Source: Amphiura filiformis (Eukaryota; Echinodermata; Ophiuroidea; Amphilepidida; Amphiuridae). From it: 64,000 nucleotides of DNA. The stretch covers positions 52,913,365 through 52,977,364 of the forward strand of contig NC_092644.1 of NCBI RefSeq assembly GCF_039555335.1. Reading direction: 5' to 3'. A program made the position numbers and the translations under genes. Positions within the stretch are counted from its first letter, which is position 1; the number at the start of each line of letters is the position of its first letter. Shown here in pieces: positions 6,541-57,599 of this stretch. The notes beneath the pieces were generated by a model. That model had not been told where the DNA came from and ran no database searches. It saw nothing but the letters and a program-made list of their open reading frames with translations.

Positions 6541-8370
6541 TCAATTTCTGTTTCTGTCAAATATTCTCATTTTGTGGCACTCTTTGACTATAATATTGTA
6601 CAGGTTTCACTCTGTCTCTCTAATAAACAAGTTTTGATGCCCAGAAAAAGGTCAATTTCTGTTTCTGTCAAATATTCTCATTTTGTGGCACTCTTTGACT
6701 ATAATATTGTACAGGTTTCACTCTGTCTCTCTAATAAACAAGTGTTGATGCCCAGAAAAAGGGCGATTTCTGTTTCTGTCAAATAGGCCCCCTATTCTCA
6801 TTTTGTAGCACTCTTTGACTATAATATTGTACAGGTTTCACTCTGTCTCTCTAATAAACAAGTTTTGATGCCCAGAAAAGGCGATTTCTGTTTCTGTCAA
6901 ATATTCTCATTTTGTGGCACTCTTTGACTATAATATTGTACAGGTTTCACTCTGTCTCTCTAATAAACAAGTTTTGATGCCCAGAAAAAGGGCGATTTCT
7001 GTTTCTGTCAAATATTCTCATTTTGTGGCACTCTTTGACTATAATATTGTACAGGTTTCACTCTGTCTCTCTAATAAACAAGTTTTGATGCCCAGAAAAA
7101 GGTCAATTTCTGTTTCTGTCAAATATTCTCATTTTGTGGCACTCTTTGACTATAATATTGTACAGGTTTCACTCTGTCTCTCTAATAAACAAGTTTTGAT
7201 GCCCAGAAAAAGGTCGATTTCTGTTTCTGTCAAATATTCTCATTTTGTGGCACTCTTTGACTATAATATTGTACCGGTTTCACTCTGTCTCTCTAATAAT
7301 CAGGTTTTGATGCCCAGAAAAAGATCGATTTCTGTTTCTGTAAAATATTCTCATTTTGTGGGACTCTTTGACAATAATATTGTATAGGTTTTACTCTGTT
7401 TCTCTAATAAACAGGTTCTGATGCCCAGGAAACGGTCGATTTCTGTTTTTGTAAAATATTTCCATTTTGTTGCACTCTTTGACTATAATATTGTACAGGT
7501 TTCACTCTGTCTCTCTAATAATCAGGTTATGATGCCCAGAAAAAGGTTCATTTCTGTTTCTGTAAAATATTCTCATTTTTTGGCGTTCTTTGACTGTAAT
7601 ATTGTATAGCTTTCACTCTGTCTCTCTAGTAATCAGGTTTTGATGCCCAGAAAAAGGTCTATTTCTGTTTCTGTAAAATATTCTCATTTTGTGACACCTT
7701 TTGGCTATATAGGTTTCACTCTGTTTCTCTAATAAACAAGTTTTGTTGCCCAGAAAAAGGTCAGTTTCTGTTTCTGTCAAATATTCTCATTTTGTGGCAC
7801 TCTTTGACAATAGTATTGTATAGGTTTTACTCCGTCTCTCTAATAATCAGGTTTTGATGCCCAGAAAAAGGTCAATTTCTGTTTCTGTCAAATATTCTCA
7901 TTTTGTGGCACTCTTTGACAATAATATTGTATAGGTTTTACTCTGTCTCTCTAATAATCAGGTTTTGATGCCCAGAGAAATGTCGATTTCTGTTTCTGTA
8001 AAATATTCTCATTTTGTGGCACTCTTTGACTATAATATTTTAACCCTGTCTCTCTTTGATTGCGATCACTATTTACGCCAGGGCAGAGAATGGAGGATTT
8101 TTGCAGATAAATGTCGCATCCCCCGCATATTGAAGGGAAAATTTCATGTCCCCTTAAATCCCCATTCCTTCTGTATAATTTCCTGTCCCCTCCAATATCA
8201 AGGTCAAATTTCCTGGCCCCCTCCTCATGTCAATTAAAAAGTTGCCATCCCCTAAAATCCTCCATTCCCCTGGGGTAAATAGTGATTGCTGTCTCTGTAA
8301 AAAAATTCTCATTTAGTGGCACTTTTTGAATGTAATATTGTACAGGTTTATACGCCCTGTCTCTCTCAGT
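6541..8370 (+). repeat. 111-bp minisatellite, about 14 copies
   Basis: The unit contains TTTCTGTTTCTGTCAAATATT, TTGACTATAATATTGTACAGG and GATGCCCAGAAAAAGG. Successive GATGCCC words are 111 bp apart (6636, 6747). As 111 is divisible by three, plus-strand frames stay open for up to 157 codons and read a 37-residue repeat containing CLSNKQVLMPRKRSISVSV. I consider that frame a by-product of the period. Copies are most alike in the first half and more diverged, with ATCAGG replacing AACAAG, downstream. A short insertion interrupts the array near 6787, and an element splits it at 8061-8290. Confidence 0.9.
8061..8290. mobile_element. MITE inserted in the minisatellite
   Basis: The left end GCGATCACTATTTACGCCAG and the right end CCCTGGGGTAAATAGTGATTGC are inverted copies of about 30 bp. 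Minisatellite sequence resumes right after it (TCTCTGTAAAAAAATTCTC), so the element inserted into one array copy. It has no coding sequence. Confidence 0.75.
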
Positions 8371-15285: not shown

Positions 15286-15690
15286 AAGGTCTGCCATTCC
15301 AAAGGTTCGATTTCCGAACATGCAATTTTACCATTCGCTATTCCGAAAAGGTTAGCTAATAAAAAAAAAACGGTTCTCTAATCCGAAGGCTCTCTATTCC
15401 TAAAATTCTCAAAACACAAACAGATTCTCTATTCCGAAAACAAAAAGGTTCTCTATTCCGAATATGAAAAGGTTCTCTATTCTGAATATGAAGAAATAGG
15501 TTCTCTATTCCAAAAACAAATAAGGGTTCTTTATTCCGAAACAAGTCCCAGTGTTCTCTACTCCGAATATGAAATAAGTTTCTCTATTACGAATATGAAT
15601 AAAGTTTTCCATTCCTAAATCTAAATAGGTTTCTTTATTCCAAAATGAGTCACAAATTCCAAATTATAAAAAAAGGTTCATTTTTCCGTA
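15286..15690 (+). repeat. Left-arm minisatellite of the foldback element
   Basis: About 14 diverged units of 24-30 bp are built on GGTTCTCTATTCCGAA plus an A-rich spacer. The 62-codon minus frame across it only reflects the repeat. Confidence 0.85.
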
Positions 15691-16133
15691 TCTGTCTATG
15701 TTGAATCATCTTTAGACTCTCTAATAAGACCAATTGGAGTTGAGCAAAGCACTGTTAAACCAATGTGTCATGTGCGGAAGAACCCTAATAAATGTCTGTT
15801 TTTTTTCAATTTCGATAGAGCTTCATGTATCTGGAGTTCCTCTGATTACTTGTAAAGGTAGAGAACAGTTTGAAGTTTGTAACTGTGGAGTCTGCAATGT
15901 TTTGCATGTGCAGAACAATAGAAAACTAGCTACTTTGCATCCAATTTGCATATATTAAGATGACAAACTGAAAATTCAACAAAATTTAACCATTAGGGTA
16001 TAATGTAGACCTACATCACAAAATCACATACAAATGAAGCAAATTTTAAACACTGTTGTTCCTTATCTATTATAATATCCTTATATATCATAAATTTTAA
16101 CAAATTTGGGCAATTTCTCTTTTTACATGATAA

Positions 16134-17957
16134 TACAGTACGGCGGCAACTTCGTGACCTCTTTTGTTCGATAGAAAATTATTTCGAGTTGGTGAGCACG
16201 GTGTTTCATAACACAATGTTGAAAAATTTGGCCGGCAAACATGTTTTAGCGAAATAGCTCCAGAAATGGGAGACACAGGTCGTTTTTTGCTTAAATTACA
16301 TACCTTTACCACAGATAAGATACCAAACATTTGTGTAAAGCATCAAAAAAACAAGTAAAAGTTGAATTATATTGAAAATAAAGAAGCTTGAACATGTCCA
16401 AAGTAGCCGGGAAAATGAGAAAAATTGCATGTCACGATCACCAAAATGGTTATATCTACAACAGGGAGTAAGTTACTCTCAAAACAGCCTTGTGTTGCAA
16501 TCGTGCATGACCATTGGTGACTAGTGTCACTAGCAGGGCTGTCAACTCTCACGCATTGGCTGTGAGTCTCACGCATTGGGTCACTTTCTCACGGTCTCAC
16601 GCCAAGGTAGTATAATCTCACTCCTAGGTAGTAAATCTCGTGCAAAATGCTGGAAAATGAGTAAAATCTCACGCATCATCAACCAAATTTGTTCGAACCT
16701 TACCGTAGAAATTTGATTTTTTTCCTCTCTTGTTCTGTTAGGCCTATGAGTATTATGATGATGATCATTTGGAAATATTTATATGCAACCTGTTTGTTTT
16801 GCCACAGTCTTCCCTGCAATGTTTTTCTTTATGTGTACATATCAAATAATGATATAGCGTCAGCCATAATGTACGAATTTCAAACCTGATTTTTGGGCAT
16901 ATTTGTAATTTTTACACATGTCCTTACACCATACCCAGATATACACCGAATTGGAATCAGCAGCGGCTCGTTGTAAAGAGCAACTTTGATGATCTCCAAT
17001 AGAACGCCACAGTTAAGCGGTCAAGATAAAAAATGCTTTCTATCATTTTACCTCATTATTTCTACTTCAAATGACCAGAAATCCTTCCTGAAAGTTGTTT
17101 ACTAATATCGTAAATATTTTCATAATTTAAAAACAAAACAAAAAAACTTTCAACCTCCCGCACTACAGGCACGGCCCTAGCCACTAGACCATCACATCTT
17201 GCTACCTTATTCTTGCACCTTTTACAATGTTATTTCTAATTCAGTGTCTCGTTCAACAATAATCTTTTTTAAACTGTTTGTAAGTTCAGTCAAATGGGAT
17301 GAAATTACTTTTTATATTGACTTCGATATTTTGTAAGACATGGTAGTATTTTGTATGAATAAATATATATCACTGGAGTCAACTGGACGATTCTGACAAT
17401 TATTAATCGATATATATATGGACGAGCCAGCGGCTATTTTGCTAGTGACACTGGTCACCAATGGTCACGCACGATTGTGACACGAAGCTGTTTTGAAAGC
17501 AACTTTCCAACCTACGATTCGATTATTCCACAAATCATTTTTGCTGAAAATTTAATACAAGCTCACATTAGTTAATATCTATCATTACGGAAAAAATACG
17601 ACCGGCGTTTGCTCATAGTTGTAGATATAACCAATTTGGTGATCGTGACATGCATTTTTTTTTTTTTTTAGGCTACTTCACACACAATAAACATTCATTT
17701 TGTCCACAATAGGCTACTTCACGCACAATAAACATTCATTTTGTCCACAATAATTGGACTTTTACACATTACTGTTTGTTTCATATCTTATCTATGGGCC
17801 CAGTACAGGAATTAAGCGAGAAATGGCTTGTGTATTCCATTTTTTTAGTATTTCCAAAAAACCATCTTTGTCGTCTTATTTTCAACATTTTTCAACACAG
17901 CAAAGGTCATGCCGGTAAAAATTACCGGAAGTGAGCTAAGATGCCGTCGTACTGATA
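16134..17957. mobile_element. Nested inverted-repeat element of about 1.8 kb
   Basis: CAGTACGGCGGCAAC on the left faces GATGCCGTCGTACTG on the right. Long inner arms also pair: 16426-16540 (ATGTCACGATCACCAAAATGG, CCATTGGTGACTAGTGTCAC) against 17445-17660 (GTGACACTGGTCACCAATGG, TTTGGTGATCGTGACATGCA). It lies wholly within the larger foldback. No coding sequence is recognised. A 45-bp tandem duplication containing TAGGCTACTTCAC lies at 17669-17755. Confidence 0.7.
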
Positions 17958-17989
17958 GCTAGGAATAAATACCAGAATCATCTCATCTG

Positions 17990-18087
17990 GAGGTTACTTC
18001 AAATCATCCCAAAGTCATGGTTTAGGGAATGTTCTAGCTGTACTCTCAAACCATGTGACTTGGGGATGATTTGAAATCACCTCTACT
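17990..18087. repeat. Small hairpin element
   Basis: GAGGTTACTTCAAATCATCC pairs with GGATGATTTGAAATCACCTC, with AAAGTCATGGTTT against AAACCATGTGACTT inside. The length is about 98 bp. Confidence 0.75.
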
Positions 18088-18339
18088 TATGTTAAAAGAG
18101 ACACACGTAGCAAACAAATTTGTCATATGTCGACTAAAATATTAGTCTAAATTTTGTCAGAAACACTCACTTGCGTAACATTGTGGGGCTTTACCATGAT
18201 GACTGCATGGACTAGGCCTATACCCCAGAATCAATGCTAGACATGTTTCATTCCGTGACTGATATTTTACTGCTTCCATGGAGAAATGTGCCTGAGAAGG
18301 GGTAAATTTTGACAAACTTTACACTGAATAGCTATAACC

Positions 18340-18620
18340 AAGGAAAAAAAATTATATACTGAGGTTAGCCGATGGCTTTGTGAAGTCATTTCTATATACT
18401 GAAGATATATATACTGCTGATGGCTATGATAAGTCATTAATATCTACTGAATGTAACTGATGACTACGAAGTCATTGCTATCTACTGAAGATAGCTGATG
18501 GCTATAAGAAGTCATTAATATCCACTGAAGATAGCTGATGACTATGTGAAGTCAGTGCTATCAAAGGAAGATAGCAGATTGTTCTGTGAAGTCATTGCTA
18601 TCTACTGAAGATAGCTGATA
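18340..18620. repeat. About 40-bp tandem repeat, roughly 7 copies
   Basis: AAGTCATT words recur at 18431, 18469, 18509, 18549 (as AAGTCAGT) and 18589, together with TCTACTGAAGATAGCTGATG. Non-coding. Confidence 0.85.
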
Positions 18621-19324
18621 GCATAGTTAACACAAAACATTTTCACAACATTCGCTGTTTTTAAAATGTTATAATAATGTTAAAAGTGTGGTTTTAGATT
18701 GGTTGAGAAATCACAGAAAAACATCTTGAAAATGTTTTATAAATATTTCTGATATGCAGAAACATATAAATTTCATATTTTATTTTATTTTGGCATTGTT
18801 TGCACCATTCATTCTCCATTGAAACAATCCCTTGTGCAAGACTTCTCACGGGGGAGGGGGAGCTGCTCCCCTTTACCCAGGCTACACCACTGTATGAGAC
18901 CTAAATTTACCCATGATCCTTTGCGCATGCCTAACCCTCCGAATTATTAGCTTCGTAAAATGGCCTAAAATTCAACATGGTTCAATCCAAATGACGGTTT
19001 GATTTTCATTGCTATAGATTCCAGAAATATCCCATGGAAATAATACTAAAAGTTTACCAAAATATAAACAGATATTCTATGGATTTTCACCCCGTAATAG
19101 TAGTATAAATAGAGAGTTTTCGACCCAAGCTGGTAAGAAAAATGGTCCCTGGTTTATTGGAGCCATTATGTGCTCTCATAACCCATTCCGTAAAAACATA
19201 CTGTCAAAACCCAATGGCATACCATCCAACCCTAAACTATGGCAAAGCACCATAAATTACACTGCACAGGCCTATATCATACCAGCAAACCTTAAGGACT
19301 TTGCTAGAGAGTGCAACATGATTC

Positions 19325-19720
19325 AACAACGACAGATTCAGAAAAAAGGAAACTCTTTTATAATTCGAAATAGAGATCACAGCGACTCATTTCGGAATAA
19401 AGAACCTTTTTTAGATTTTGGAATGGAGAACCTTTTTTTCATATTCCGAATAGGGAACTTTTTTCATATTCGGAATTGAAAACACAGTGACTTTTCGGAA
19501 TAAATATTTTTTCGTTTTGGAATAAAGAACCCATATTTTCATATTGGAATAGAGAAACCATTTTCATATTGGAATAGAGAAACCATTTTCATATTCAGAA
19601 TAGAGAACCTTTTCTGTTTTCAGAATTGAGAACCCTAGAGGACCTTTTTAATTTTCAGAATAGTGAACATTCGGAATAGCAAACATTCAGAATACCGAAC
19701 CTTGGGAATAGCGAACTTCG
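19325..19720 (-). repeat. Right-arm minisatellite of the foldback element
   Basis: This is the reverse orientation of the left-arm repeat, with units built on TTCGGAATAGAGAACC. Arm-to-arm divergence is visible. Confidence 0.85.
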
Positions 19721-23738: not shown

Positions 23739-23953
23739 GGATTAATACCACTGCATGGCTATCTGAATCAACCACTGAAGCCCAATGATTGATTGATAGC
23801 AAATTCATCATAGTCTATCAGAAGGACCACACTATTGTTATAATAAAAATAGTGTGATCTCTCTTAAAATAGTGTGGTCCTTCTGGATAGACTAGGATGA
23901 AATGGCTGTCAATCAAGAACTGGGCTTCAGTGGTTGATAGACTGCCACGCGGT
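23739..23953. mobile_element. Hairpin element with about 100-bp arms
   Basis: TACCACTGCATGG...GAAGGACCACACTATT on the left pairs with AATAGTGTGGTCCTTC...GGTGGTA on the right. The shared arm words are GGGCTTCAGTGGTTGAT, TAGTCTATC and TCAATCA. The loop is only about 10 bp. Confidence 0.8.
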
Positions 23954-27700: not shown

Positions 27701-27904
27701 TCCTTACATTAAGTCTTTGCATTTATACGCATTACACGTTTTTTTGTAGGTCATGATGTTATCAGCAATTTTGTATTAACAAGTTTCCACTTTGTAAATA
27801 ATAAATTCAACATGTACTGTTAATGACATTGAAAATAAAAACATTTCTGACATACCTTGCAACTGTCTGAACAAGTCTTCAATACTTTCTTCATCAGGGG
27901 AAGG

Positions 27905-28020
27905 CTTATCTGCACCAGGGGGATATCTGCACCAGGGGAAGGCTTATCTGCACCAGGGGAAGGCTCATCTGCATCAGGGGGAGGCTCATCTGCACCAGGG
28001 GAAAGCTCTTCTGCAGTGTC
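27905..28020 (-). repeat. 21-bp coding minisatellite (GADEPSP repeat)
   Basis: GCACCAGGGGAAGGCTCATCT-like units repeat about five times and read as GADEPSP on the minus strand. A unit of altered length near 27920 shifts the frame; beyond it PDEESIEDLFRQLQ resumes in another frame and leads into the splice donor. Confidence 0.8.
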
Positions 28021-30539
28021 ATTTGGGGAAGGTTCTTCTGATGGTTGGTTTTCATGAGAAGTGGGTATTTCACGATCCATCTTCAATACTTGTCTCTGCC
28101 ACGGGTTAACGTAAGTTGCATTGGCACAGTTGGTTGGGGACTTGAAATGCACCCTTCACAGAAGCACCCCAGTAAACGAGTTTTTATCACACCGGGCGAC
28201 ACACACTTGATGGCATGAAAGGCACGGGTTCCTGCTACTGGCTTCTTAACTCCTTGTTTTCTTTCTCTTTGGATTTCATTTCTTCTGACGAAGAAGAACG
28301 TCTGGCGTTGTCCCTTGCAACTTTCTCTTGACAGTTCTTCTTTACAGTAGGTGTACATTTCTTCTGCTGTATTAATCACAGCTCTTCTCGAAACAACGGC
28401 TCTCCTGACTGCACTTTTTACCACCCCTGAAACCCCATCGCTAGGCCCCTTTCCATGCCTTGATCCGAAATATAGTCTTTCAAAGTCGTCGACCCCATAA
28501 TCCTCTGTGGCATAGCTTATGTCACCAAATGGGCCGCGGGATTTATATTGACAGCCGCAGCCGTCCGTGTACTCAACTATGTGTTCCAAAGGAAGTCCCT
28601 ACTTTCCTTGAGGTGCTTTACAGCGACCTCTTCGAAATGATGCACTGCATGGAAATCGTGCCCTAAATCTTCGCTTATGAAAACCATCGCCTCTTGGACT
28701 ATGTGGGACTGAGTTGCATCAGAGTGCACACAATTATAATAGCCAACGATAGGGTGAACAGTCACTTGTTGAGTCGCCCAATGTGCAGACTGTATTTCAT
28801 CTTGAGATAGGCATCCATAATTTTCTGCAAAATCCAGTACCAGCAAGGCCCAGTTCTGTGGGAGCTTTGTACTAATTTCTGTAAACATGTCCTGCTGCCA
28901 GTTAGCAACAAATACATGCTTGGCTAGAGTTTCGGTTTCATTCAATAGTTCTTCCACCAGCTCGGATATGGTCTTTCTCTGTGTGATCAGAACTTTTTTT
29001 GCTTTTGTTTTCCCATTGTGTTCATAAGTTTGAAGTGCCCACTTTCGCCACTGTACCATAGAGTCACCATGAGCTGCTATCAGTGGTGTAAATCGGTTAC
29101 GCAGCTTTTCAGTTCCACATTCTGGGCAACTCCTGTTTATGCAGTCAGGTTTTGCATAGTTGTCACCGTCGTTCTTTGGGCACATTGATAGACCAATTAG
29201 CTCATACTTATTTTTGACTTTTATGTCTGGCATCTCATACACCTGAGCAGCCCTGTTCAATGACTCCAATTTAAGCAGAATATCAGTACAGTACTCACAG
29301 AGACATTGATTAAGTTTATTTCTGTGTTGAAGGAGGACATTTTCAGGTCTCAGCTTTTGAAACAACGAGCGACTAACAACGGTAACATGATCTGGGTGTT
29401 CTTCCTTCCACATTGTGTATGCCTGATCAATAGAGACTTCCATAACCCTTCTCTGTGTCTGCTGTTTCACTGTTCTCATGTACGGCAATTCCCTCGATAC
29501 CTTCGGTAATCTGTAAAATGACTGTATTTCGTTAATCACCTCCATGCTTGTAGCATCGCTTCGTCTTTTCCGCGACTTTGACATCATATCCTCATCAAGT
29601 GATTTTGAAAGCTCCGACAGGTAATTGGGCGCACATCCAATTGTTTGGCTAAGTGACTTTGCATACGGTATTTCTTACTTATTAGATTTGCTCTCACCAG
29701 TAGTCGCTCTCTTTAAGGGAAGCGGAATCTTTTTTTTCTTCAGTTCTTGGACTCTCCTTTTTACACTGTCTGTCATGCACTTTCCTAACTGTAGGGTTCT
29801 TTTTGCACTTAATACACCAATACCACGTCTTTGCAATGCAGCTTGTTTCCTCGGTGTTGTGTGCTTTCCTGACACAAAGTCTTCTACTATGGACATAAAT
29901 TTTTCTGGATCGTTTATTGGAAATCGTTCCCACAATCTCTTGAATGCCATCCGTTGTGCAGACTTGGATATGAAACCACTAGATGTCCGGGGAGGAGTGC
30001 TATTGACTGGACATTGCTTTCCTTGGTTTTCCTTTCGCTTTTCACTTCTCCTTTTTGCATCTATTTCCCTTGCTCGCCTCTTCTGTTGTGGGTTCATCCT
30101 AGCTCTGCGTTCTTGTTGTTTAATCCGATTATATTCAGTTTTTTTTTTTTTCTGTGCGAGTAAGTACTTTTGACTTTTTTCCTTGTGTTGTACATTTTCC
30201 TTTGGCAGATTCTACAGCTCCTTCAGAGAGTCGTTTTTCATAGCGTTGTTGTCGAATACGGCCTGTTTCTCTATCTCGTTCTCTTTGCTTTTCTGTTCTT
30301 TTGGCTCGTCGTTCACGTTGACGTGCAGCTTCCGATGCTAAAAACTTTTTCCTTGCTTCAGGATCTTGCTTTAATTTTTCTCGCCTATTTCTAGCCCAAC
30401 GTACAGAAGATGCAGAAGGTGTATGTGCAGAAGATGTAGAAGGTGTATCTTCATCATTTTCAGGCGAATCATTCTCACGCTCGGCAACATCACACGGTTT
30501 TTTACGATTGAAACTCCTCATCCGAATACTCAACACCAT

Positions 30540-30740
30540 CTTGACAACACTAGCCTATATTAAAAAAAGGGGGGAAAAAAGGTAAGTGTTAGAACACAGG
30601 GCGATTCTTTAACCCACATTACCACAAGTGTCACTGCTTTCTTTTAAAATGTCAAAACAAATGCAAAATGATGTGATTGGACGCCCTGTGTCTACTTTTA
30701 TTGTATTTTTTACCCACTTCCCAAGCAATATAAAATAAAC
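30540..30740 (-). promoter_or_regulatory. Possible 5' UTR splice acceptor upstream of the transposase-like gene
   Basis: On the minus strand a pyrimidine-rich run followed by AATATAG|GCTAGTGTTG ends about 15 bases before the ATG. This suggests that the start codon lies near the beginning of a second, coding exon. The promoter itself is not identified. Confidence 0.3.
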
Positions 30741-31160
30741 CTCGGCCATGTGAACATCCCCACCAGAGGCTCAGTTTTTTTTATTATGGAGCCCAGACTA
30801 CCCACCACTAAGACCACTTTACTAAGACCTATCAGAACCATTCATGTGAACACCCCGCTGGAGGATCCGTTTTGAGTTATGGAGCCCGGACTACCCACCA
30901 CTGAGACCACCTTACCAAGACCTATCAGAACCATTCATGTGAACACCCGGTAGGTTGACCTACAAAAGGGAAAAAAAATGTTTGTGTTTTTAATATGCAT
31001 AGTGATAATTTGTGTTCATGCCATACTATGCACACAAATTATCACTTTGCATATTAAAAACACAAACATTTTTGTAGGTCAACCATGAATGATCCTAGCA
31101 TTTAGTACTAGGTCCAGGGACACTCCAAAACCGAAAAAAATTTAAAAAAAAAAAAAAAAA

Positions 31161-31660: not shown

Positions 31661-31859
31661 TAATAATTCAAGACTCAAACAAATTATGCACACAACCCCC
31701 CCCCAAAAAAAACCTAAGCAGCCCGATTAATTTCAAAAGAAGTCCTCATTATTTTTGTTTATGGCAGAAGTGGCTTTATACGATAAGGCTATAAGCACAA
31801 TTGGGCTACTAAATCAGGAGTTTGGCAACCCTGTTGAAGCGAGTGAGCCAATGATCAAC

Positions 31860-32713
31860 CATGGAAGAAAGAGATAAGAAGGAACCACAACGAACACATT
31901 CACTTTGTCCACTCCCTTTACCGACATTTAATTGACATTGTTATTCATGAGGATTTACTTTGATCAATACCCCGCGTTAAATAGGTGATTGGTATTGTAC
32001 TCTATGTATTTGCATGTCTTCTGGAGCGTGTCTGAAGGATGATTTGAACTAATGACCTTCCGTGCAAGCACTCTATAGGATTTTCTCTGGTGACGTGATC
32101 ATCGGTCATTGATGGCCTACATCTTTTTCTTCCATTTCGCCCAATTTTCCCGAACTTTGATGACTTTTTTTCTCAGAGTTGGCAGTCTTTGGCACTGAAA
32201 CGAGTTAGCTAGTTACGATTATACACATATAAACTATTAAATTAAACAGGTTTCATGTACCGGACTCAACCGGAACATTGTGCATTATTTAAGAACATTT
32301 TGCATCTATTTTTCATCGAAAAAGTCACCAAAATCTTACCTTATTTGCTAAAGATGAAACTCAGCAAATAAACGGCCGATTTTGATGACCTTTTCGATGT
32401 GTTAAAGGACATTTTCTACACAACACGATCAAGAAAACAGTTTGACTGTAGATCCCAAAACAAAGCTACTATACATGTTCAGAGCATCAGTGAAATTCCA
32501 TAATCTTACTTCTGGGTAGCGTTTGTTTGTTCTTGGATGGGTTTGTTATAGTTTTTTCCAGTAATGATTTCGCCAAGCATCGATCGCGGTAAATGGATCA
32601 TACATGAAAGTAAGTACCATTGATAGCTTTTCTTTTCATGCGTCAATGGATAAGCGGATTAAAACTTGGTCGATCGAAGTCGTTGTGGTTCCTTCTCATC
32701 TCTTTCTTCCATG
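31860..32713. mobile_element. 854-bp non-autonomous element, copy 1, 7-bp target duplication
   Basis: The termini are CATGGAAGAAAGAGATAAGA and the inverse of TCTCATCTCTTTCTTCCATG: a TIR of about 34 bp with one mismatch. GATCAAC flanks it exactly on both sides (31853-31859 and 32714-32720). It is almost identical along its whole length to copy 2, differing visibly only in T-run lengths, so both moved recently. It has no protein-like frame and must depend on a transposase in trans. Confidence 0.92.
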
Positions 32714-32813
32714 GATCAACAAAGCCTGGTGCACCACTAGACTTGAGGTAGCGCAAAAAAAAAGAAGATTGGAAAAACTGTCCTTGGCTGGCTTGGCTTG
32801 GGTGCCGGCGCAC

Positions 32814-33310
32814 GTGGCACGTCTGTCAACAATCTGACGAACGTGCAGCACATCTGTCAACAATCTGACGAACGTACACGGAATAAGCTTTAATTTTTGT
32901 TTACACCAGTTTAATCACAAATGCGTTCGTTAAAGCACATCGTGTATATTGGGGGTTCTAAATCTAGCATCTTGGTGGAGAAACGACAACAATATCTTTA
33001 GCGAGGTAGCAAATATCAAAGTTTAAAAATAAAATGGCTGTCAAACCCTGACGCACGCCCAGAAAGTCTGTAAAAATCTAACGTACGCATGCAACGTGTC
33101 CGTACAAAAGCATTGGTGCGAGTATAAACACAAACATCCTCGAGGCAAAGCCCCGAGGCAGTGCGTAAATCGTGGTTTAAATTACTCTAATTTACACATG
33201 GACTGGCTCAGTTTTGTCTATATATACCGATTTATCAGTTGTAATATATTTTCAAGGAAATTTATACTCACGTACGTCAGAATAGTCGGTCGTCAGGTTT
33301 GTTGACAGAC
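32814..33310. repeat. Cluster of CTGTCAA..CTGACG..ACGT motifs
   Basis: CTGTCAACAATCTGACGAACGT occurs twice in tandem (31-bp period, 32817-32878). Relatives stand near 33035-33085 and 33270-33310 (GTACGTCAG, TTGACAGACGTCA). The first two are in inverted orientation to those at 24.9-25.75 kb, on the other side of the transposase-like gene. 33311-33871 holds nothing else recognisable. Confidence 0.6.
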
Positions 33311-33878
33311 GTCACTATGCAACTTGTCATGCCGCCATTGCTTGTAATTTTGCCAAGAGCTGATGACGTTCAACATCCGGGCACCTATTACATCATGTGA
33401 CGTTGTATTATAAAGGCTGGTCTGGCTTTGAGTAGGGATAACCATCAAAATTTCATGTTGACCCTATTGCTACAAAAGATTGTTTTCTGGGTAGAACTCA
33501 TCAACAGAAGTATTTTGGTGGTTAAATGGTCAAAATCGGTCAAAAACTTTTCGAATTATGAATTATCAAAGTTTCCCATTCTGACCGGTCATTGGAACGA
33601 AATAAAATGACAAGGTCCAAAAATAGCAATTGGGAGCAAAATTGGCATAAGCATATATTTACCTTTATATATTTCTTTATTTTAACATATTTGCAAACAT
33701 GAAACAAGCATATTGTGAAAGTATCAAAGGTTTTTTTTATGAAATGGCACTTAACTAGTCACTGGCATAACTTATTTTTTCAAACCGAGGCATTGAAATC
33801 ATGCATTTAGAGGACATTTGCCAAAAATCATCCAAGATAGCCAATATGGCACAAAATCAAAATTGCACTAACTAAGAA

Positions 33879-34732
33879 CATGGAAGAAAGAGATAAGAAG
33901 GAACCACAACGAACACATTCACTTTGTCCACTCCCTTTACCGACATTTAATTGACATTGTTATTCATGAGGATTTACTTTGATCAATACCCCGCGTTAAA
34001 TAGGTGATTGGTATTGTACTCTATGTATTTGCATGTCTTCTGGAGCGTGTCTGAAGGATGATTTGAACTAATGACCTTCCGTGCAAGCACTCTATAGGAT
34101 TTTCTCTGGTGACGTGATCATCGGTCATTGATGGCCTACATCTTTTTCTTCCATTTCGCCCAATTTTCCCGAACTTTGATGACTTTTTTCTCAGAGTTGG
34201 CAGTCTTTGGCACTGAAACGAGTTAGCTAGTTACGATTATACACATATAAACTATTAAATTAAACAGGTTTCATGTACCGGACTCAACCGGAACATTGTG
34301 CATTATTTAAGAACATTTTGCATCTATTTTTCATCGAAAAAGTCACCAAAATCTTACCTTATTTGCTAAAGATGAAACTCAGCAAATAAACGGCCGATTT
34401 TGATGACCTTTTCGATGTGTTAAAGGACATTTTCTACACAACACGATCAAGAAAACAGTTTGACTGTAGATCCCAAAACAAAGCTACTATACATGTTCAG
34501 AGCATCAGTGAAATTCCATAATCTTACTTCTGGGTAGCGTTTGTTTGTTCTTGGATGGGTTTGTTATAGTTTTTTTCCAGTAATGATTTCGCCAAGCATC
34601 GATCGCGGTAAATGGATCATACATGAAAGTAAGTACCATTGATAGCTTTTCTTTTCATGCGTCAATGGATAAGCGGATTAAAACTTGGTCGATCGAAGTC
34701 GTTGTGGTTCCTTCTCATCTCTTTCTTCCATG
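33879..34732. mobile_element. 854-bp non-autonomous element, copy 2, 7-bp target duplication
   Basis: This has the same termini and interior as copy 1. CTAAGAA flanks it exactly (33872-33878 and 34733-34739), a different target from copy 1. The two are therefore independent insertions and not one segmental duplication. Confidence 0.92.
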
Positions 34733-34927
34733 CTAAGAAGGTGAACTTTTTTTTCACAACCAAGAATTTCAATGTTATTGGGTTTAATATGACCAATTAG
34801 TAGGTGTATGTAAACAAAATCTTAAGTTTTGAAGGTCATTGACTCATTCACAACAATAGAGATTATCCACTCATCATGCTCATGTGTGACTTCTAACAAA
34901 AGGCGCTGGTTCCTGTAGTATTCCTCA

Positions 34928-39931: not shown

Positions 39932-40257
39932 GTCAAGCCAAACAAGAGAAATGTGTCTGATTGGGGAAGGTGTTCTGACAATCCAAATATAAACTTAGTC
40001 CACCTCAAATGACCTGTAACAATTTGTGATTGACATTACTTAATTCGCCTCGGATGACTTTGATCTGACATTCAACTTTTTCGTTCTTACACCAATCATA
40101 TCCATAACAATTTAACTCTTACAACTTCCTGTCAACTCTCTAATTTAAAACTCTAAATTTCTCTGTTTGCCTTTTCTGTCTACAGTTTGTTACAATTATT
40201 ATGATAAGCAAACATTGCTGGGTAGATAACAGGATTTAGTTATTTACTTAATCCAAT

Positions 40258-40597
40258 CATGGAGGTAGTATAGCTACAACCTTGGCGAAATATGTTGCCA
40301 CACCTGAGCGTTAATTGGCCAACATCCTTCCCCGCTCCCCTATTGCAATGTTGATTTGGACAAAATCGTCATCATTTCTACATTACAGTCTCCCAACATT
40401 GGAAAATGGGGTGGGGGTGGGGGTGGGGGTGGGGGGTGGGGAAGGGCAAGTGCATTTGCAACTATTATACAAAATAGTACGGAACTATCCCATATTTAGC
40501 TTCGATTGCGTGCTTTTAACACCAGAACGTGCTGGTGTGGCCCTGGTGTGGCAAACGCAATTTCCGCCAGAGTTGTAGTAGGCTTACTACCTCCATG
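40258..40597. mobile_element. 340-bp element with CATGGAGG ends and 7-bp duplication
   Basis: CATGGAGGTAGTATAGC on the left faces CTTACTACCTCCATG on the right. The TIR continues through ACAAC..TGGCG..AA..TG.TGCCACACC. ATCCAAT flanks it exactly (40251-40257 and 40598-40604). The first six bases and the duplication length match the 854-bp elements. A GGGGTGGGGGTGGGGG run at 40407-40441 inside could form a G-quadruplex. Confidence 0.82.
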
Positions 40598-41099
40598 ATC
40601 CAATCATGGCAATAACGCCAATTTTGGTCTTCAGTGTTTTAAAATACAACAATGTAGAACATGTATAATTAATATGCCGTGTTGTTTGCATACAGTTTTC
40701 CACCAATTGTGCCACCATATTGCAACTTTGGCAATAACCGCTATATAGATTCTATGGTAATTAGCAAACAAAAGCCATCAGTAGAGTCCTCGTTAATTGA
40801 TCTAATCACTATGGACCACAATAGTCTCATCCCAATGGCATAGTCCAATAACCTCAATTACATAATCATAGTGCAAAATTTGACCTCAAGTTGCAGAGTA
40901 TGAGTTTGTGTACCCAAATTTTCAAAGGATGAAAGTAGGCCTACAAATGTATTAGGGCTTAAGAACTGTTCCCATGATAGATGAGCATGTTGTGGATCCT
41001 AGTGTATGGTCAAATGTCACCGTCTATCGGGTTTCTAAAGGCACACGGTAAACTGGTTGAACCCATACAAAGGTCAGGATTTATTTGGTGTTTTTATAA

Positions 41100-45704: not shown

Positions 45705-45836
45705 TGGTTGGAAACAACCATCCTTAGAAATCAATGAAAGTTAAAATATAAATAAATTGAGTTTACAACCCCGTTTATTGATGGTGGTAATGGTACCCTC
45801 CAACAATCTTGGTTGGACAACCATCCTAAAATTAGG

Positions 45837-46013
45837 GATTCAATCATGTTTCACCGTTGTTCATCACCGTTTAACAGCGATGCGTTGACAGCGTCGTCTG
45901 CGTGGTTTATTTCAGCGAGGGCAGCTTTAGCTGCCCGGCTAAGTAAACCACGCAGACGCGCCGGACGCGAAGTTGTTAAACGGTGATGAACAACGGTGAA
46001 ACATGATTGAATC
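45837..46013. mobile_element. CpG-rich hairpin element
   Basis: GGATTCAATCATGTTTCACC on the left pairs with GGTGAAACATGATTGAATCC on the right. The arms of about 75 bp include GTTGTTCATCACCGTTTAAC and CGTCTGCGTGGTTTA. The adjacent 46190-46340 is also CpG-dense and shares TTCATCACGG. Confidence 0.85.
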
Positions 46014-46437
46014 CTTTCAACAACGTAAAAGAAGCTAAAGATCGTATAATTCACATGATTATTTCATGAGGAATGTCAATTAATCATTGCCACTCGGCCT
46101 TACAAAAGCGTCGATGATTTCTCTGTTGATATCAGCAATAAAACCACAGAATAAAACTGCATGTTTAGCCGCTGCCTGAAAAATACTGAATTCAACTGGC
46201 AAAGTTTGCATATGCACATAGGTTCCCGGCATAGGTTCCAGGCGTGACGAATTTTACGCGTTCTCGCGTAACGCGTAGTCTCGCTGCGTTCAGATACGCT
46301 ACAGTAAAAGTGTGGATTCATCACGGATTAACAACGGTTGGCTGCTGTACAAAGGTATAGGAGGAGTTGTTGAAATCAATGTAAATGAATTGTTTCAGAT
46401 GTCCAATGTTTAATATTTATAATTACTTGTTACTCGA

Positions 46438-50360: not shown

Positions 50361-53300
50361 ATAACTAGACTTAGCTGTGGTCTAAGACCACGAACACAGC
50401 CGTGTTGTGACCCCTTAATGACCTTTGACCCTAAAATATATGAAAACCCCATAGATATTGGCTAATGTCAATGTATGTGTGCACGTGGCATCACTTTTGC
50501 CATGTTATTTGTGGCAGAAGGAGCATTTTGAAGGTTTTTTGTCTCAGACCGGAAGTGACACCTTAATGACCTTTTGCCCCCAAATAAAAAAAATACCACG
50601 TATACACTGAGTAACATCAATTCATGTGTGAATGTACCGTCTCTGTGCTATATTTTTCTTGGCTGATAAAGTTTTTTGAAGTTATTTCGTTTTATACCGG
50701 AAGTGACCCCTTAATGACCTTTGACCCCAAATCTGTGTACACCCCATAGACACTGGGTAATAACAATGCATGTGTGCAAGTGGCATCACTGTCCTACGTA
50801 ATTTGTGGGAGAAGATGTATTTTAAAGGTATTTCGTTTTATACCGGAAATTACCCCTTAATGACCTTTGACCCCAAAGAAAAAAATACCATATATACATT
50901 GGGTAAACATAATTCATGTGTGAACATACCATCACTCTCCTATATTTTTCTTAGCTAATAGAAATTTTTTCAGATATTTCGTTTTATACCGGAAGTGACC
51001 CCTTAATGACCTTTGACCCCAAATCTGTGTACACCCCAGTGGGGCTAGGGTAATAACAATGCTTGTGTGCAAGTGGCGTCTCTGTCCAACGTAATTTGTG
51101 GAAGAAGATGCATTTTAAAGGTATTTCTTTTTATACCGGAAGTGACCCCTTAATGAGCTTTGACCCCAAATAAAAAAAAATACCACACATACATTGGGTG
51201 ACTGAAGATCATATGTGAACATACCGTTACTGTCCCATGTTTTACTTAGCTAATAAAATTTTTTGAAGGTTTTTCGTTTTATACCGGAAGTGACCCCTTA
51301 ATGACCTTTGACCCCAAATCTGTGTACACCACATAGACACTGGATAATAACAATTCATGTGTGCAAGTGGCGTCGCTGTCATACGTAAGTCGTGGGAGTA
51401 GATGCATTTTAGTTGAAATCACGTTTTTGACCCCTATGACCTCTGCGTGACCTTTAACCCCACAAGTTTCATGTGACATGTAGGGGCACGGTCAATGATC
51501 ATTGTGACCAAGTTAGGTCAAAATCGATGTAAGCGTGTGAGTGCTAGAGCAAATGTAATGGTTGACAGAAGAAGAAGAAAGAACTAGACTTAGCTGTGGT
51601 CTAAGACCACGAACACAGCCGTGTTGTGACCCCTTACTGACCTTTGACAACAAAATATATGAAAACCCCATAGGCATTGGCTAATGTCAATGTATGCGTG
51701 CACGTGGCATTACTTTGCCATGTTATTTGTGGCAGAAGGACATTTTGAATGTTTTTCGTCTCAGACCGGAAGTGACCCTTTAATGACCTTTGACCCCAAA
51801 TCTGTGTACACCCCATGGACACTGGGTAATAACAATGCATGTGTGTAAGTGGCATCACTGTCCTGCGTAATTTGTGGGAGAAGATGCATTTTCAAGGTAT
51901 TTCGTTTTATACCGGAAATGACCCCTTAATGACCTTTGACCCCAAATAAAAAATACCATATATACATTGGTTAAAAACAATTCATGTGTGAACATACCAT
52001 CACTGTCCTATGTTTTTCTTAGCTAATAAAAATTTTTGAAGATATTTCGATTTATACCGGAAGTGGCCCCTTAATGACCTTTGACCCCAAATCTGTGTAC
52101 ACCACATTGACACTGGGTAATAACAATGCATGTGCGCAAGTGGTGTCACTGTCCTACGTAATTTGTGGGAGAAGATGCATTTTAAAGGTATTTCGTTTTA
52201 TTCCGGAAGTGACCCCTTAATGACCTTTGACCCCAAACAAAAAAATACAACATATACATTGGGTAACTGCAACTCATATGTGAACATACCGTTACTGTCC
52301 TATGTTTTCATTAGCTAATAAAATAATTTGAAAGTATTTCGTTTTAGACCGGATGTGACCCTTTAATGACCATTGACCCCAAATCTGTGTACACCATATA
52401 GACACTGGATAATAACAATGGATGTGTGCAAGTGGCGTCACTGTCCTACGTAATTTGTAGGAGAAGATGTATTTTGAGTTGAAATCACGTTTTTGACCCC
52501 TATGACCCCTGCGTGACCTTTGACCCCACAAGTTTCATGTGACATGTAGGGGCACGGTCAATGATCATTGTGACCAAGTTAGGTCAAAATCGATGTAAGC
52601 ATGTGAGTGCTAGAGCAAATGTAATGGTTGACAGAAAGAAAGAAGAAGAACTAGACTTAGCTGTGGTCTAAGACCACGAACACAGCCGTGTTGTGACCCC
52701 TTACTGACCTTTGACCCCAAAATATATGAAAACCCCATAGGCATTGGCTAATGTCAATGTATGCGTGCACGTGGCATTACTTTGCCATGTTATTTGTGGC
52801 AGAAGGGACATTTTGAATGTTTTTCGTCTCAGACCGGAAGAAACCCTTTAATGAACTTTGACCCCAAATCTGTGTACACCCCATAGACACTGGGTAATAA
52901 CAATGCATGTGTGTAAGTGGCATCACTGTCCCGCGTAATTTGTGGGAGAAGATGCATTTTAAAGGTATTTCGTTTTATACCGGAAATGACCCATTAATGA
53001 CCTTTGACCCCAAATAAAAAATACCATATATACATTGGTTAAACACAATTCATGTGTGAACATACCATCACTGTCCTATGTTTTTCTTAGCTAATAAAAT
53101 TTTTTGAAGATATTTCGATTTATACCGGAAGTGGCCCTTAATGACCTTTGACCCCAAATCTGTGTACACCACATTGACACTGGGTAATAACAATGCATGT
53201 GTGCAAGTGGTGTTACTGTCCTACGTAATTTGTGGGAGAAGATGCATTTTAAAGGTATTTCGTTTTATTCCGGAAGTGACCCTTAATGACCTTTGACCCC

Positions 53301-56300
53301 AAACAAAAAAATACAACATATACATTGGGTAACTGCAACTCATATGTGAACATACCGTTACTGTCCTATGTTTTTCTTAGCTAATAAAATAATTTGAACG
53401 TATTTCGTTTTATACCGGAAGTAACCCTTTAATGACCTTTGACCCCAAATCTGTGTACACCATATAGACACTGGATAATAACAATGGATGTGTGCAAGTG
53501 GCGTCACTGTCCTACGTAATTTGTAGGAGAAGATGCATTTTGAGTTGAAATCATGTTTTTGACCCCTATGACCCCTGCGTGACCTTTGACCCCACAAGTT
53601 TCATGTGACATGTAGGGGCACGGTCAATGATCATTGTGACCAAGTTAGGTTAAAATCGATGTAAGCATGTGAGTGCTAGAGCAAATGTAATGGTTGACAG
53701 AAAGAAGAAAGAACTAGACTTAGCTGTGGTCTAAGACCACGAACACAGCCGTGTTGTTACCCCTTAATGACCTTTGACCCCAAAATATATGAAAATGCCC
53801 ATAGACGTTGGCTAATGTCAACGCATGTGTGCACGTGGCATCACTTTGCCATGTTACTTGTGGCAGAAGGGGCATTTTGAAGGTTTTTCGTCTCAGACCG
53901 GAAGTGACCCCTTAATGACATTTGAACCCAAATAAAAAAATAACACATATGAATTAGGTAACCACAATTAATGTGTAAACATACCGTTACTGTCCTATGT
54001 TTTTCTTAGCAAATAAAATTTTTGAAAGTTTTTCGTTTTATACCGGAAGTGACCCCTTAATGACCTTTGACCCCAAATCTGTGTACACCCCATAGACACT
54101 GGGTAATAACAATGCATGTGTACAAGTGGCGTCACTGTCCTACAGAATCTGTGGAAGATGATGCATTTTGAAGGTATTTCGTTTTGTGCCGGAAGTGACC
54201 CCTTAATGGGATTTGACCCCAAATAAAAAAAAAATACCACATATACATTGGGTGACTGCAGATCATGTGTGAACATACCGTTACTGTCACATGTTTTACT
54301 TAGCTAATAAAATTTTTGAAAGTATTTCGTTTTATACCGGAAGTGACACCTTAATGACATTTGACCCCAAATCTGTGTACACCCCATATACACTGGGTAA
54401 TAACAATGCATGTGTGCAAGTGGCGTCTCTGTCCCACATAATTTGTGGAAGAAGATGCATTTTAAAGGTATTTCTTTTTATACCGGAAGTGACCCCTTAA
54501 TGAACTTTGACCCCAAATAAAAAAAAAAATACCACATATACATTGTGTGACTGCAGATCATATGTGAACATACCGTTACTGTGCTATGTTTTACTTAGCT
54601 AATAAAAATTTTTGAAGCTTTTTCGTTTTACACCGGAAGTGACCCCTTAATGACCTTTGACCCCAAATCTGTGTACACCACATAGACACTGGGTAATTAC
54701 AATGCATGTGTGCAAGTGGCGTCACTGTCCTACGTAATTTGTAGGAGAAGATGCATTTTGAGTTGAAATCACGTTTTTGACCCCTGTGGCCCCTGTGTGA
54801 CCTTTGACCCCACGAGTTTCATGTGACATGTAGGGGCACGGTCAATGATCATTGTGACCAAGTTAGGTCAAAATCGATGTAAGCATGTGAGTGCTAGAGC
54901 AAATGTAATGGTTGACAGAAAGAAGAAAGAAAGAAGAACTAGACTTAGCTGTGGTCTAAGACCACGAACACAGCCGTGTTGTGACCCCTTAATCACCTTT
55001 GACCCCAAAATATATGAAAACCCGATAGACATTGGCTAATGTCAATGCACGTGTCCACGTGGCATCACTTTGCTATGCTTTTTGTGGCAGAAGGGGCATT
55101 TTGAAGGTATATCGTTTTATACCGGAAGTGACCCCTTACTGACCTTTGACCAGAAATGTGTGTACACCATATAGACACTGTGTTATAACAATGCATGCGT
55201 GCAAGTGGCGTCACTGTCCCCCGGCACTGTCCTACGTAATTTGTGGAAGAAGAAGCATTTTAAAGGTATTTCGTTTTATCCCGGAAGTGACCCCTTAATG
55301 ACCTTTGACCCCAAATAAAATAATACCACATATAAACTGGGTAACCACAATTCATGTGTGAACATACCGTTACTGTCCTATGTTTTTCTTAGCAAATAAA
55401 AATTTTTGAAGGTTTTTCGTTTTATACCGGAAGTGACCCCTTAATGACCTGTGACCCCAAATCTGTGTACACCCCATAGACACTGGGTAATAACAATGCA
55501 TGTGTGCCAGTGGCGTCTCTGTCCCACATAATCTGTGGAAGAAGATGCATTTTAAAGGTATTTCGTTTTATACCGGAAGTGACCCCTTAATGAGATTTGA
55601 CCCCAAATACAAAAATACCACATATACATTGGGTGACTGCAGATCATGTGTGAGCATACCGTTACTGTCCCATGTTTTACTTAGCTAATAAAAAATTTTG
55701 AAGGTATTTCGTTTTATACCGGAAGTGACCCCTTAATGACCTTTGACCCCGAATCTGTGTACACCCCATAGACACTGGGTAATAACAATGCATGTGTGCA
55801 AGTGGCGTCTCTGTCCCACATAATTTGTGGAAGAAGATGCATTTTAAAGGTATTTCTTTTTATACCGGAAGTGACCCCTTAATGAGCTTTGACCCCAAGT
55901 AAAAAAAAATACCACATATACATTGGGTGACTGCAGATCATATGTGAACATACCGTTACTGTGCTATGTTTTACTTAGCTAATAACATTTTTGAAGGTTT
56001 TTCGTTTTATACCGGAAGTGACCCTTAATGACCTTTGACCCCAAATCTGTGTACACCACATAGACACTGGGTAATAACAATGCATGTGTGCAAGTGGGGT
56101 CGCTGTCCTACGTAAGTTGTAGGAGAAGATGCATTTTTAGTTGAAATCACGTATTTGACCCCTGTGACCCCTGCGTGACCTTTGTCCCCACGAGTTTCAT
56201 GTGACATGTAGGGGCGTGGTCAATGATCATTGTGACCAAGTTAGGTCAAAATCGATGTAAGCATGTGAGTGCTAGAGCAAATGTAATGGTTGACAGAAAG

Positions 56301-57413
56301 AAGAAGAAGAAGAAGAAAGAACCTGTAAGAAAAAAGACACAGCCGTGACTAACGTCACGGCTGTGTAAGAAGAACCTGTAAGAAAAAAGACACAGCCGTG
56401 ACTAACGTCACGGCTGTGTAAAGAAGAAGAAGAACCTGTAAGAAAAAAGACACAGCCGTGACTAACGTCACGGCTGTGTAAAGAAAGAATTAGCTGTGGT
56501 CTAAGACCACGAACACAGCCGTGTTGTGACCCCTTAATGACCTTTGACCCCAAAATATATGAAAACGCCCATAGACATTGGCTAATGTCAACGCATGTGT
56601 GCACGTGGCATCACTTTGCCATGTTACTTGTGGCAGAAGGGGCATTTTGAAGGTGTCTCAGACCGGAAGTAACCCCTTAATGACATTTGACCCCAAATAA
56701 AAAAATACCACATATGAATTGGGTAACCACAATTCATGTGTGAACATACCGTTACTGTCCTATGTTTGTTCTTGGCAAATAACATTTTTTGAAGGTTTTT
56801 CGTTTTATACCGGAAGTGACCCCTTAATGACCTTTGACCCCAAATCTGTGTACACCCCATAGACACTGGGTAATAACAATGCATGTGTGCAAGTGGCGTC
56901 ACTGTCCTACAGAATCTGTGGAAGAAGATGCATTTTAAAGGTATTTCTTTTTATACCGGAAGTGACCCCTTAATGAGCTTTGACCCCAATTAAAGAAAAA
57001 TACCACATATACATTGGGCGACTGCAGATCATATGTGAACATACCGTTACTGTGCTAAATTTTACTTAGCTAATACAAATTTGTGAAGGTTTTTCGTTTT
57101 ATACCGGAAGTGACCCCTTAATAACCTTTGACCCCAAATCTGTGTACACCACATAGACACTGGGTAATAACAAGGCATGTGTGCAAGTGAGGCCGCTGTC
57201 CTACATAAGATGTGGGAGAAGATGCATTTTTAGTTGAAATCACGTTTTTGACCCCTATGACCTCTGCATGACCTTTGACCCCATGAGTTTCATGTGACAT
57301 GTAGGGGCACTGTCAATAATCATTGTGACCAAATTAGGTCAAAATCGATATAAGCATGTGAGTGCTAGAGCAAATGTAAAGGTTGACAGAAGAAAGAAGA
57401 AGAAGAAAGAAAG
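50361..57413 (+). repeat. Higher-order satellite: six super-units of about 0.9-1.5 kb made of ~145-bp monomers
   Basis: Super-units start with CTAGACTTAGCTGTGGTCTA at 50365, 51584, 52651, 53714 and 54939, and truncated at about 56490. Each ends with AATGGTTGACAGAA plus a GAA/GAAA run. Inside, two monomer types alternate: one with CCAAATCTGTGTACACC, one with ATACCACATATACATTGGG. Both begin around ATACCGGAAGTGACCCC, TTAATGACCTTTGACCCC. The several open frames over the array are repeat products. No transcript or protein can be supported. Confidence 0.93.
56321..56480 (+). repeat. Hairpin monomer cluster 1 (three copies)
   Basis: Each copy is ACCTGTAAGAAAAAAGAC plus the perfect hairpin ACACAGCCGTGAC-TAAC-GTCACGGCTGTGT. 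The copies look identical to each other and to cluster 2. They are separated by GAA-type spacers and sit exactly between two satellite super-units. Confidence 0.92.
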
Positions 57414-57570
57414 AACCTGTAAGAAAAAAGACACAGCCGTGACTAACGTCACGGCTGTGTAAGAACCTGTAAGAAAAAAGACACAGCCGTGACTAACGTC
57501 ACGGCTGTGTAAAGAAAGAAGAACCTGTAAGAAAAAAGACACAGCCGTGACTAACGTCACGGCTGTGTAA
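57414..57570 (+). repeat. Hairpin monomer cluster 2 (three copies)
   Basis: The same monomer as cluster 1, after the GAA run that ends the last super-unit. The array then stops and AT-rich sequence with AATAAA begins. Confidence 0.92.
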
Positions 57571-57599
57571 TAAAACTGTAATGAAATAGTTTATTGTAA

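What the first reader, a model, noticed from the sequence alone, without database searches (positions are those of the whole stretch)
31860..34732. Two near-identical 854-bp elements with exact 7-bp target duplications
Both copies are 854 bp, with CATGGAAGAAAGAGAT termini, and are flanked by GATCAAC and CTAAGAA respectively. Seven-base duplications are unusual among known DNA transposon superfamilies (P is usually 8, Dada 6-7, hAT 8, Mutator about 9). Two young insertions 1.2 kb apart suggest recent activity, perhaps local hopping.
Basis: seen in the sequence. Interest (0 to 1): 0.75.

Follow-up and report, generated by a model that had tools for sequence, protein, structure and literature searches.

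The report
Two young non-autonomous DNA transposons
Two almost identical copies of a small jumping gene that cannot move by itself sit close together in what looks like animal DNA; they are real, recent-looking insertions of a known general kind, and the 7-base scar they leave is already known from relatives of the fruit-fly P element.

Summary
Two 854-bp elements (31860-32713, 33879-34732) differ only by two one-base T-run indels; both have 34-bp terminal inverted repeats (one mismatch) and exact 7-bp duplications, GATCAAC and CTAAGAA. Unrelated flanks make them separate insertions. A scan that did not use the CATG motif found a third insertion of another family, 40258-40597 (340 bp), CATGGA-ended, also with an exact 7-bp duplication. 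None of 150 resampled windows gave a structure of this grade. The 854-bp copies have no open frame over 69 codons: best read as non-autonomous cut-and-paste transposons using a transposase encoded elsewhere. That 7 bp is unusual does not hold: in the P superfamily, 1360 makes 7 bp in 274 of 279 insertions and Galileo mostly 7 bp, and the Drosophila P end also begins CATG. P-superfamily placement is the leading guess, not shown: similarity beyond CATG is weak, and no transposase or genome was available. Local hopping is untestable here. Ordinary; modest interest.

The parts
31853..31859 (+). left target-site duplication GATCAAC of copy 1
   Evidence: sequence
31860..32713 (+). copy 1 (e1), 854-bp non-autonomous element
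31860..31893 (+). left terminal inverted repeat of copy 1, 34 bp
32680..32713 (-). right terminal inverted repeat of copy 1, 34 bp, one mismatch to the left one
32714..32720 (+). right target-site duplication GATCAAC of copy 1
32121..32136 (-). internal copy of the terminal 16 bases (14 of 16), inverted, inside copy 1
   Evidence: besides the four ends and the twin site in copy 2, no other match with up to 2 mismatches in the window
32314..32399 (.). internal imperfect palindrome of copy 1 (75% over 88 aligned columns)
   Evidence: blastn self-match; paired in the fold
33872..33878 (+). left target-site duplication CTAAGAA of copy 2
33879..34732 (+). copy 2 (e2), 854 bp, two one-T indels relative to copy 1; its own 34-bp inverted repeats are 33879-33912 and 34699-34732
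34140..34155 (-). internal copy of the terminal 16 bases (14 of 16), inverted, inside copy 2
34733..34739 (+). right target-site duplication CTAAGAA of copy 2
40251..40257 (+). left target-site duplication ATCCAAT of the third insertion
40258..40597 (+). third insertion (e3), 340 bp, different family, ends CATGGAGGTAGTA (13 bp exact; gapped inverted repeat of 47/53 bp at 79.6%)
40598..40604 (+). right target-site duplication ATCCAAT of the third insertion

Best explanation
The two 854-bp copies are non-autonomous cut-and-paste DNA transposons (MITE-like: inverted ends, no gene). A transposase encoded elsewhere in the genome binds the 34-bp ends, excises the element and joins it to target DNA at strand-transfer points 7 bp apart; gap repair gives the exact 7-bp duplications. 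The 340-bp element at 40258, unrelated inside, has the same CATGGA start and a 7-bp duplication and is probably moved by the same or a related enzyme. The most likely enzyme is a P-superfamily transposase of the 7-bp kind (as for 1360 and Galileo). Shown: the ends, exact 7-bp duplications in three insertions, independence of e1 and e2, no long open frame in them. Inferred from the established biology of such elements: mobilisation in trans. Guessed: the P superfamily.
For: Exact anatomy. Longest stop-to-stop open frame 56 codons in e1, 69 in e2. Third element with the same type of end and duplication found without using the CATG motif; its first 13 bases match the e1 end at 9 of 13, a level reached by 234 of 127,974 window 13-mers, the elements' own ends included. 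For P: the D. melanogaster P end is printed as CATGATGAAATAACATA in PMC4004357; P-superfamily members make 7-bp (1360, Galileo) or 8-bp duplications; Anopheles P elements have 27-31 bp inverted repeats and MITE derivatives (PMC1562414). The e1 ends match the 31-base P end at 16 and 15 of 31 positions (shuffles p = 2.3e-3 and 7.4e-3).
Against: With CATG held fixed, the remaining match to the P end is weak (p = 0.05 and 0.11), and e3 matches at only 9 and 11 of 31 (p = 0.40 and 0.14). D. melanogaster P makes 8-bp duplications. Repbase's rule for filing two non-autonomous elements together (same duplication length, at most 1 mismatch in the first 11 bases) is not met: e1 against P has 5 mismatches (and 7 v 8 bp), e1 against e3 has 3. 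No further copy of these ends, hence no autonomous partner, is in the window, and no P-transposase or THAP domain (E up to 0.05) was found in six frames over 20001-49700. e3 holds an 87-codon open frame that was not examined on its own; it lies in the stretch scanned. No genome could be searched.
Confidence: 0.55

Rival explanations
1. Same non-autonomous cut-and-paste element, but moved by a transposase of another superfamily with CA..TG ends and 7-bp duplications (a 7-bp hAT lineage, a KDZ element, or an undescribed one).
For: Fungal hAT7 and Kyakuja elements make 7-bp duplications, and the Kyakuja ends are CA..TG (PMC12730594). An unclassified nematode inverted-repeat element also has 7-bp duplications (PMC3169594). 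The P match beyond CATG is weak.
Against: The two Kyakuja families described there lack inverted repeats, whereas these have 34 bp; hAT7 was reported there from rust fungi, and hAT usually makes 8 bp. Dada-U6 and Dada-U1 have no terminal inverted repeats and Dada is known mostly from small-RNA genes, while no Rfam (gathering threshold) or tRNA match lies in this window. IS3EU has TA..TA ends and usually 6 bp (PMC10045372).
Confidence: 0.4
2. The two copies are near-identical not because both inserted recently but because gene conversion between neighbours 2 kb apart keeps them alike.
For: Zero substitutions over 853 aligned bases within unrelated flanks is compatible with it.
Against: Both 7-bp duplications are still perfect, which fits young insertions and would not be protected by conversion; not decisive, since 7 bases carry little clock.
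Confidence: 0.1
3. Segmental duplication or assembly artefact.
For: Close spacing and near identity.
Against: Different duplications and unrelated flanks on both sides of both copies.
Confidence: 0.02

Closest known systems
1360 (Hoppel), P superfamily, Drosophila
   Same: modal duplication of 7 bp (274 of 279 insertions, PMC3276498 Table 3); inverted-repeat element
   Different: The synonym Hoppel is recalled
Galileo, P superfamily, Drosophila
   Same: mostly 7-bp duplications (three copies of 8 bp in D. willistoni); many copies lack a transposase
   Different: up to 1.2-kb Foldback-like inverted repeats and a GTANTAC target consensus; here 34-bp repeats and no evident consensus in three sites
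Drosophila P element and Anopheles P-MITEs
   Same: the P end begins CATG; inverted repeats of 31 bp in Drosophila P and 27-31 bp in Anopheles; MITE derivatives with unrelated interiors
   Different: 8-bp duplications; little end similarity beyond CATG
Dada
   Same: 6-7 bp duplications
   Different: no terminal inverted repeats in Dada-U6 and Dada-U1; insertion mostly in small-RNA genes
Kyakuja (KDZ) and hAT7 of fungi
   Same: 7-bp duplications; CA..TG ends in Kyakuja
   Different: the Kyakuja families described have no inverted repeats; both reported from fungi in that paper
Unclassified 936-bp inverted-repeat element of Meloidogyne
   Same: inverted repeats, similar size, 7-bp duplications (PMC3169594, passages seen)
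   Different: its sequence and class are not given in the passages seen, so no end comparison was possible

Membership tests
Non-autonomous TIR DNA transposon (MITE-like) | inverted termini flanked by fixed-length direct duplications | tested here: met
   three insertions, all exactly 7 bp; in e3 a rightward extension of up to 5 bp also matches because the genome after it reads CATGG, but not in register with the inverted repeat
Non-autonomous TIR DNA transposon (MITE-like) | no transposase gene | tested here: met
   longest open frame 56 codons in e1, 69 in e2, 87 in e3. A weak Pfam match inside both 854-bp copies, RnlA-toxin_DBD (E 8.7e-4 and 0.013 with stops read as residues, 20.1 and 16.3 bits against a cut-off of 27), runs over several stops and is taken as chance
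Non-autonomous TIR DNA transposon (MITE-like) | many dispersed copies in the genome | not testable with these tools
   no genome held; 2 copies in 64 kb
P superfamily | P-type transposase (THAP, RNase H with GTP-binding insertion) in the autonomous partner | not testable with these tools
   no other copy of these ends in the window; no P or THAP domain at E up to 0.05 in 20001-49700; no genome
P superfamily | 7- or 8-bp target duplications | tested here: met
   7 bp in 3 of 3 insertions; literature range
P superfamily | terminal similarity to a known P end (Repbase rule: 11 bases, at most 1 mismatch, same duplication length) | tested here: not met
   5 mismatches in 11 against the only end compared, D. 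melanogaster P, and 7 v 8 bp (rule); 1360 and Galileo ends were not available. Hence not filed as a member, only as the likeliest placement
Dada | no terminal inverted repeats; insertion mostly in small-RNA genes | tested here: not met
   34-bp inverted repeats; no tRNA or Rfam match in the window; description
IS3EU | TA..TA termini, usually 6-bp duplications | tested here: not met
   CA..TG termini, 7 bp (definition)
Kyakuja (KDZ) | 7-bp duplications, CA..TG termini, no inverted repeats | tested here: not met
   34-bp inverted repeats present (description of two families)
hAT | hAT transposase; usually 8-bp duplications (7 in fungal hAT7) | tested here: inconclusive
   duplication is 7 bp in 3 of 3; transposase not available

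The most novel reading that the evidence does not exclude
CATGGA-ended elements with a fixed 7-bp duplication form a separate lineage of cut-and-paste transposons outside flies: either a 7-bp branch of the P superfamily or an undescribed superfamily, with at least two non-autonomous families active in this genome.
Probability: 0.15. Interest if true: 0.4.

Novelty: new member of a known kind. Interest (0 to 1): 0.2.

Why it matters
If the P placement holds and the host is not a fly, it adds an example of P-superfamily elements that cut targets 7 bp apart, which bears on why P and 1360 differ in spacing. Otherwise it is one more young non-autonomous transposon family, useful mainly for annotating this genome.

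Tried and rejected
Segmental duplication: rejected by unrelated flanks. A fourth CATG element at 45845-46005: rejected, because its inverted repeat continues outward (41-bp perfect arms from 45836 and 46014, starting GGATTCAATCATG), so the apparent one-mismatch 7-bp duplication is part of the repeat. Eight-bp reading of the duplications: rejected, one more base on either side breaks e1 and e2; in e3 only the rightward extension matches. Dada, IS3EU, Kyakuja: see membership test. The neighbouring broken gene (27820-30554, minus) as autonomous partner: no match to the terminal 16 bases with up to 2 mismatches near it. Other rows of the scans, not taken up: one search printed 30 rows, 4 of them at 7 bp (e1, e2, e3 and 15463-19443, a 9-bp repeat between two arrays listed); the rest are 6- or 8-bp rows, most from the array at 56317-57586. 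One search printed 17 pairs of CATG ends at 7-8 bp with up to one mismatch in the duplication; e1, e2, e3 and the rejected 45845 pair have 13-16 of 16 matching end bases, the other 13 have 9-11.

Searches that led nowhere: a 16-base end pattern in viral contigs gave 56 loci with one match each, taken as chance; longer end patterns in viral contigs and genome contigs gave 0; the 365-aa ORF of the neighbour gene found nothing in viral contigs, PDB or phages. Target-site consensus: three sites are too few. Of ten literature searches (open-licence PMC only), I saw no non-Drosophila P element with 7-bp duplications, but I looked at listings and at found passages of 14 papers, and read no whole paper, so this is no proof of absence. 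One 7-bp case in a moth turned out to be a truncated retroelement (PMC1852546).

Full report
Observation. The finding is accurate in the details checked. e1 (31860-32713) and e2 (33879-34732) are both 854 bp, in the same orientation, 1,165 bp apart, and differ by two single-T indels in T runs. The inverted repeats are 34 bp with one mismatch in both. The direct duplications GATCAAC and CTAAGAA are exact, and extension by one base on either side fails in both copies. Flanks are unrelated: blastn of 200 bp on each side of both copies gave only matches of 27 bp or less elsewhere in the window. These are two insertion events.

A third insertion. Scans for an inverted repeat abutting an exact duplication, made without reference to the CATG motif, turned up a 340-bp element e3 at 40258-40597 with ends CATGGAGGTAGTA and duplication ATCCAAT. 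With a 13-bp exact repeat and an exact duplication the window has three structures at 7 bp (e1, e2, e3), one at 6 bp and none at 8-10 bp; 150 order-2 Markov resamples gave 0 at 7, 0 at 8 and 1 at 6 bp in total. Under the looser rule (14 bp, up to 2 mismatches) the window gave 3 at 7 bp and 2 at 8 bp, and 25 order-1 resamples gave 8 and 4 in total, so that rule alone would not convince. The seed-based scan printed 30 rows; four were at 7 bp, the fourth being a 9-bp repeat between two tandem arrays. e3 matches the e1 end at 9 of 13 positions (234 of 127,974 window 13-mers reach this), but the interiors are unrelated. The genome just after the right duplication of e3 also reads CATGG.

What it is. 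The longest stop-to-stop open frame is 56 codons in e1, 69 in e2 and 87 in e3. e1 folds as single-stranded DNA better than shuffles (z -5.0 against 20 shuffles); its end repeats and an internal imperfect palindrome are paired in that fold. Each copy carries an internal inverted near-copy of its own 16-base terminus (14 of 16), at 32121-32136 and 34140-34155; no other match with up to 2 mismatches lies outside the elements. The simplest reading is a non-autonomous cut-and-paste transposon supplied with transposase in trans. No partner with these ends lies in the window, and no P or THAP domain was found at E up to 0.05 in six frames of 20001-49700; the only matches there, RnlA-toxin_DBD inside e1 and e2 below cut-off, run over several stops and are taken as chance. 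The rest of the window was not scanned this way: of ten ORFs of at least 110 codons outside that stretch, three (6869, 19018, 61614) were put to Pfam.

Which transposase. The Drosophila P end begins CATGATGAAATAACATA, with 8-bp duplications (PMC4004357, passages seen). An unclassified nematode inverted-repeat element of 936 bp also has 7-bp duplications (PMC3169594, passages seen). The e1 ends match the 31-base P end at 16 and 15 of 31 positions, better than shuffles (p 2.3e-3 and 7.4e-3), but much of that is CATG itself (p 0.05 and 0.11 with CATG fixed), and e3 does no better than shuffles over 31 bases (9 and 11 matches, p 0.40 and 0.14). Repbase's rule for filing non-autonomous elements (PMC4455052, passages seen) is not met against P or between e1 and e3. 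So P-like with 7-bp spacing is the likeliest placement, not a demonstrated membership. Dada, IS3EU and Kyakuja as described in the passages seen each fail a tested feature; hAT with 7 bp remains open.

Age and local hopping. No substitution in 853 aligned bases and perfect duplications fit recent insertion, but gene conversion between neighbours is not excluded and no clock is available. P elements hop locally over about 50-150 kb (PMC7776569, passages seen); two copies 2 kb apart in one window cannot show it.

Limits. The species is unknown; a C2H2 zinc-finger array at 61614-62537 suggests an animal (inference). No genome is held, and the collections searched for DNA patterns are viral and prokaryotic, so genome-wide copies, copy number and the autonomous partner remain unknown.

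Verdict. A correct and careful observation of an ordinary kind of thing: a young non-autonomous DNA transposon pair, probably P-superfamily, with a duplication length already documented in that superfamily.

Noticed in passing
window 27820-30554, minus strand: A broken, multi-frame gene (five ORFs of 111-365 aa in adjoining frames) with transposase-like motifs by eye (DG..QYK, HGKG..DG); no Pfam match above cut-off (best Zn_Tnp_IS91, E 0.075). Its 365-aa ORF found nothing in PDB, viral contigs or phages. The motif reading is recalled, not from a call.
   Followed up: partly
window 45836-46014: A 179-bp inverted-repeat element with 41-bp perfect arms starting GGATTCAATCATGTTTCACCG; a different short element without a clear duplication.
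   Followed up: partly
window 40251-40262 and 40598-40609: After the right duplication of e3 the genome reads CATGG again, so the duplicated stretch could be read as 12 bp (ATCCAATCATGG); could be chance or a trace of an earlier insertion at the same site.
   Followed up: no
window 31761-31859 and 32714 onward: e1 splits an open frame starting ATG at 31761 that stays open across the reconstructed empty site for 71 codons; its first 47 residues have no Pfam or PDB match, so it may be chance.
   Followed up: partly
window 50407-57230: Large arrays of a roughly 146-bp repeat unit (with TGACCTTTGACCCC), in several blocks.
   Followed up: no
window 6544-8039: Tandem array of 13.5 copies of a 111-bp unit; since 111 is a multiple of 3 it gives a repetitive open frame.
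   Followed up: no
window 23767-23938 and 30974-31073: Two further foldback structures: 53-nt arms 87% complementary, and 46-nt arms 96% complementary.
   Followed up: no
window 61614-62537: Open frame with a C2H2 zinc-finger array (Pfam zf-C2H2, 7 stretches).
   Followed up: no
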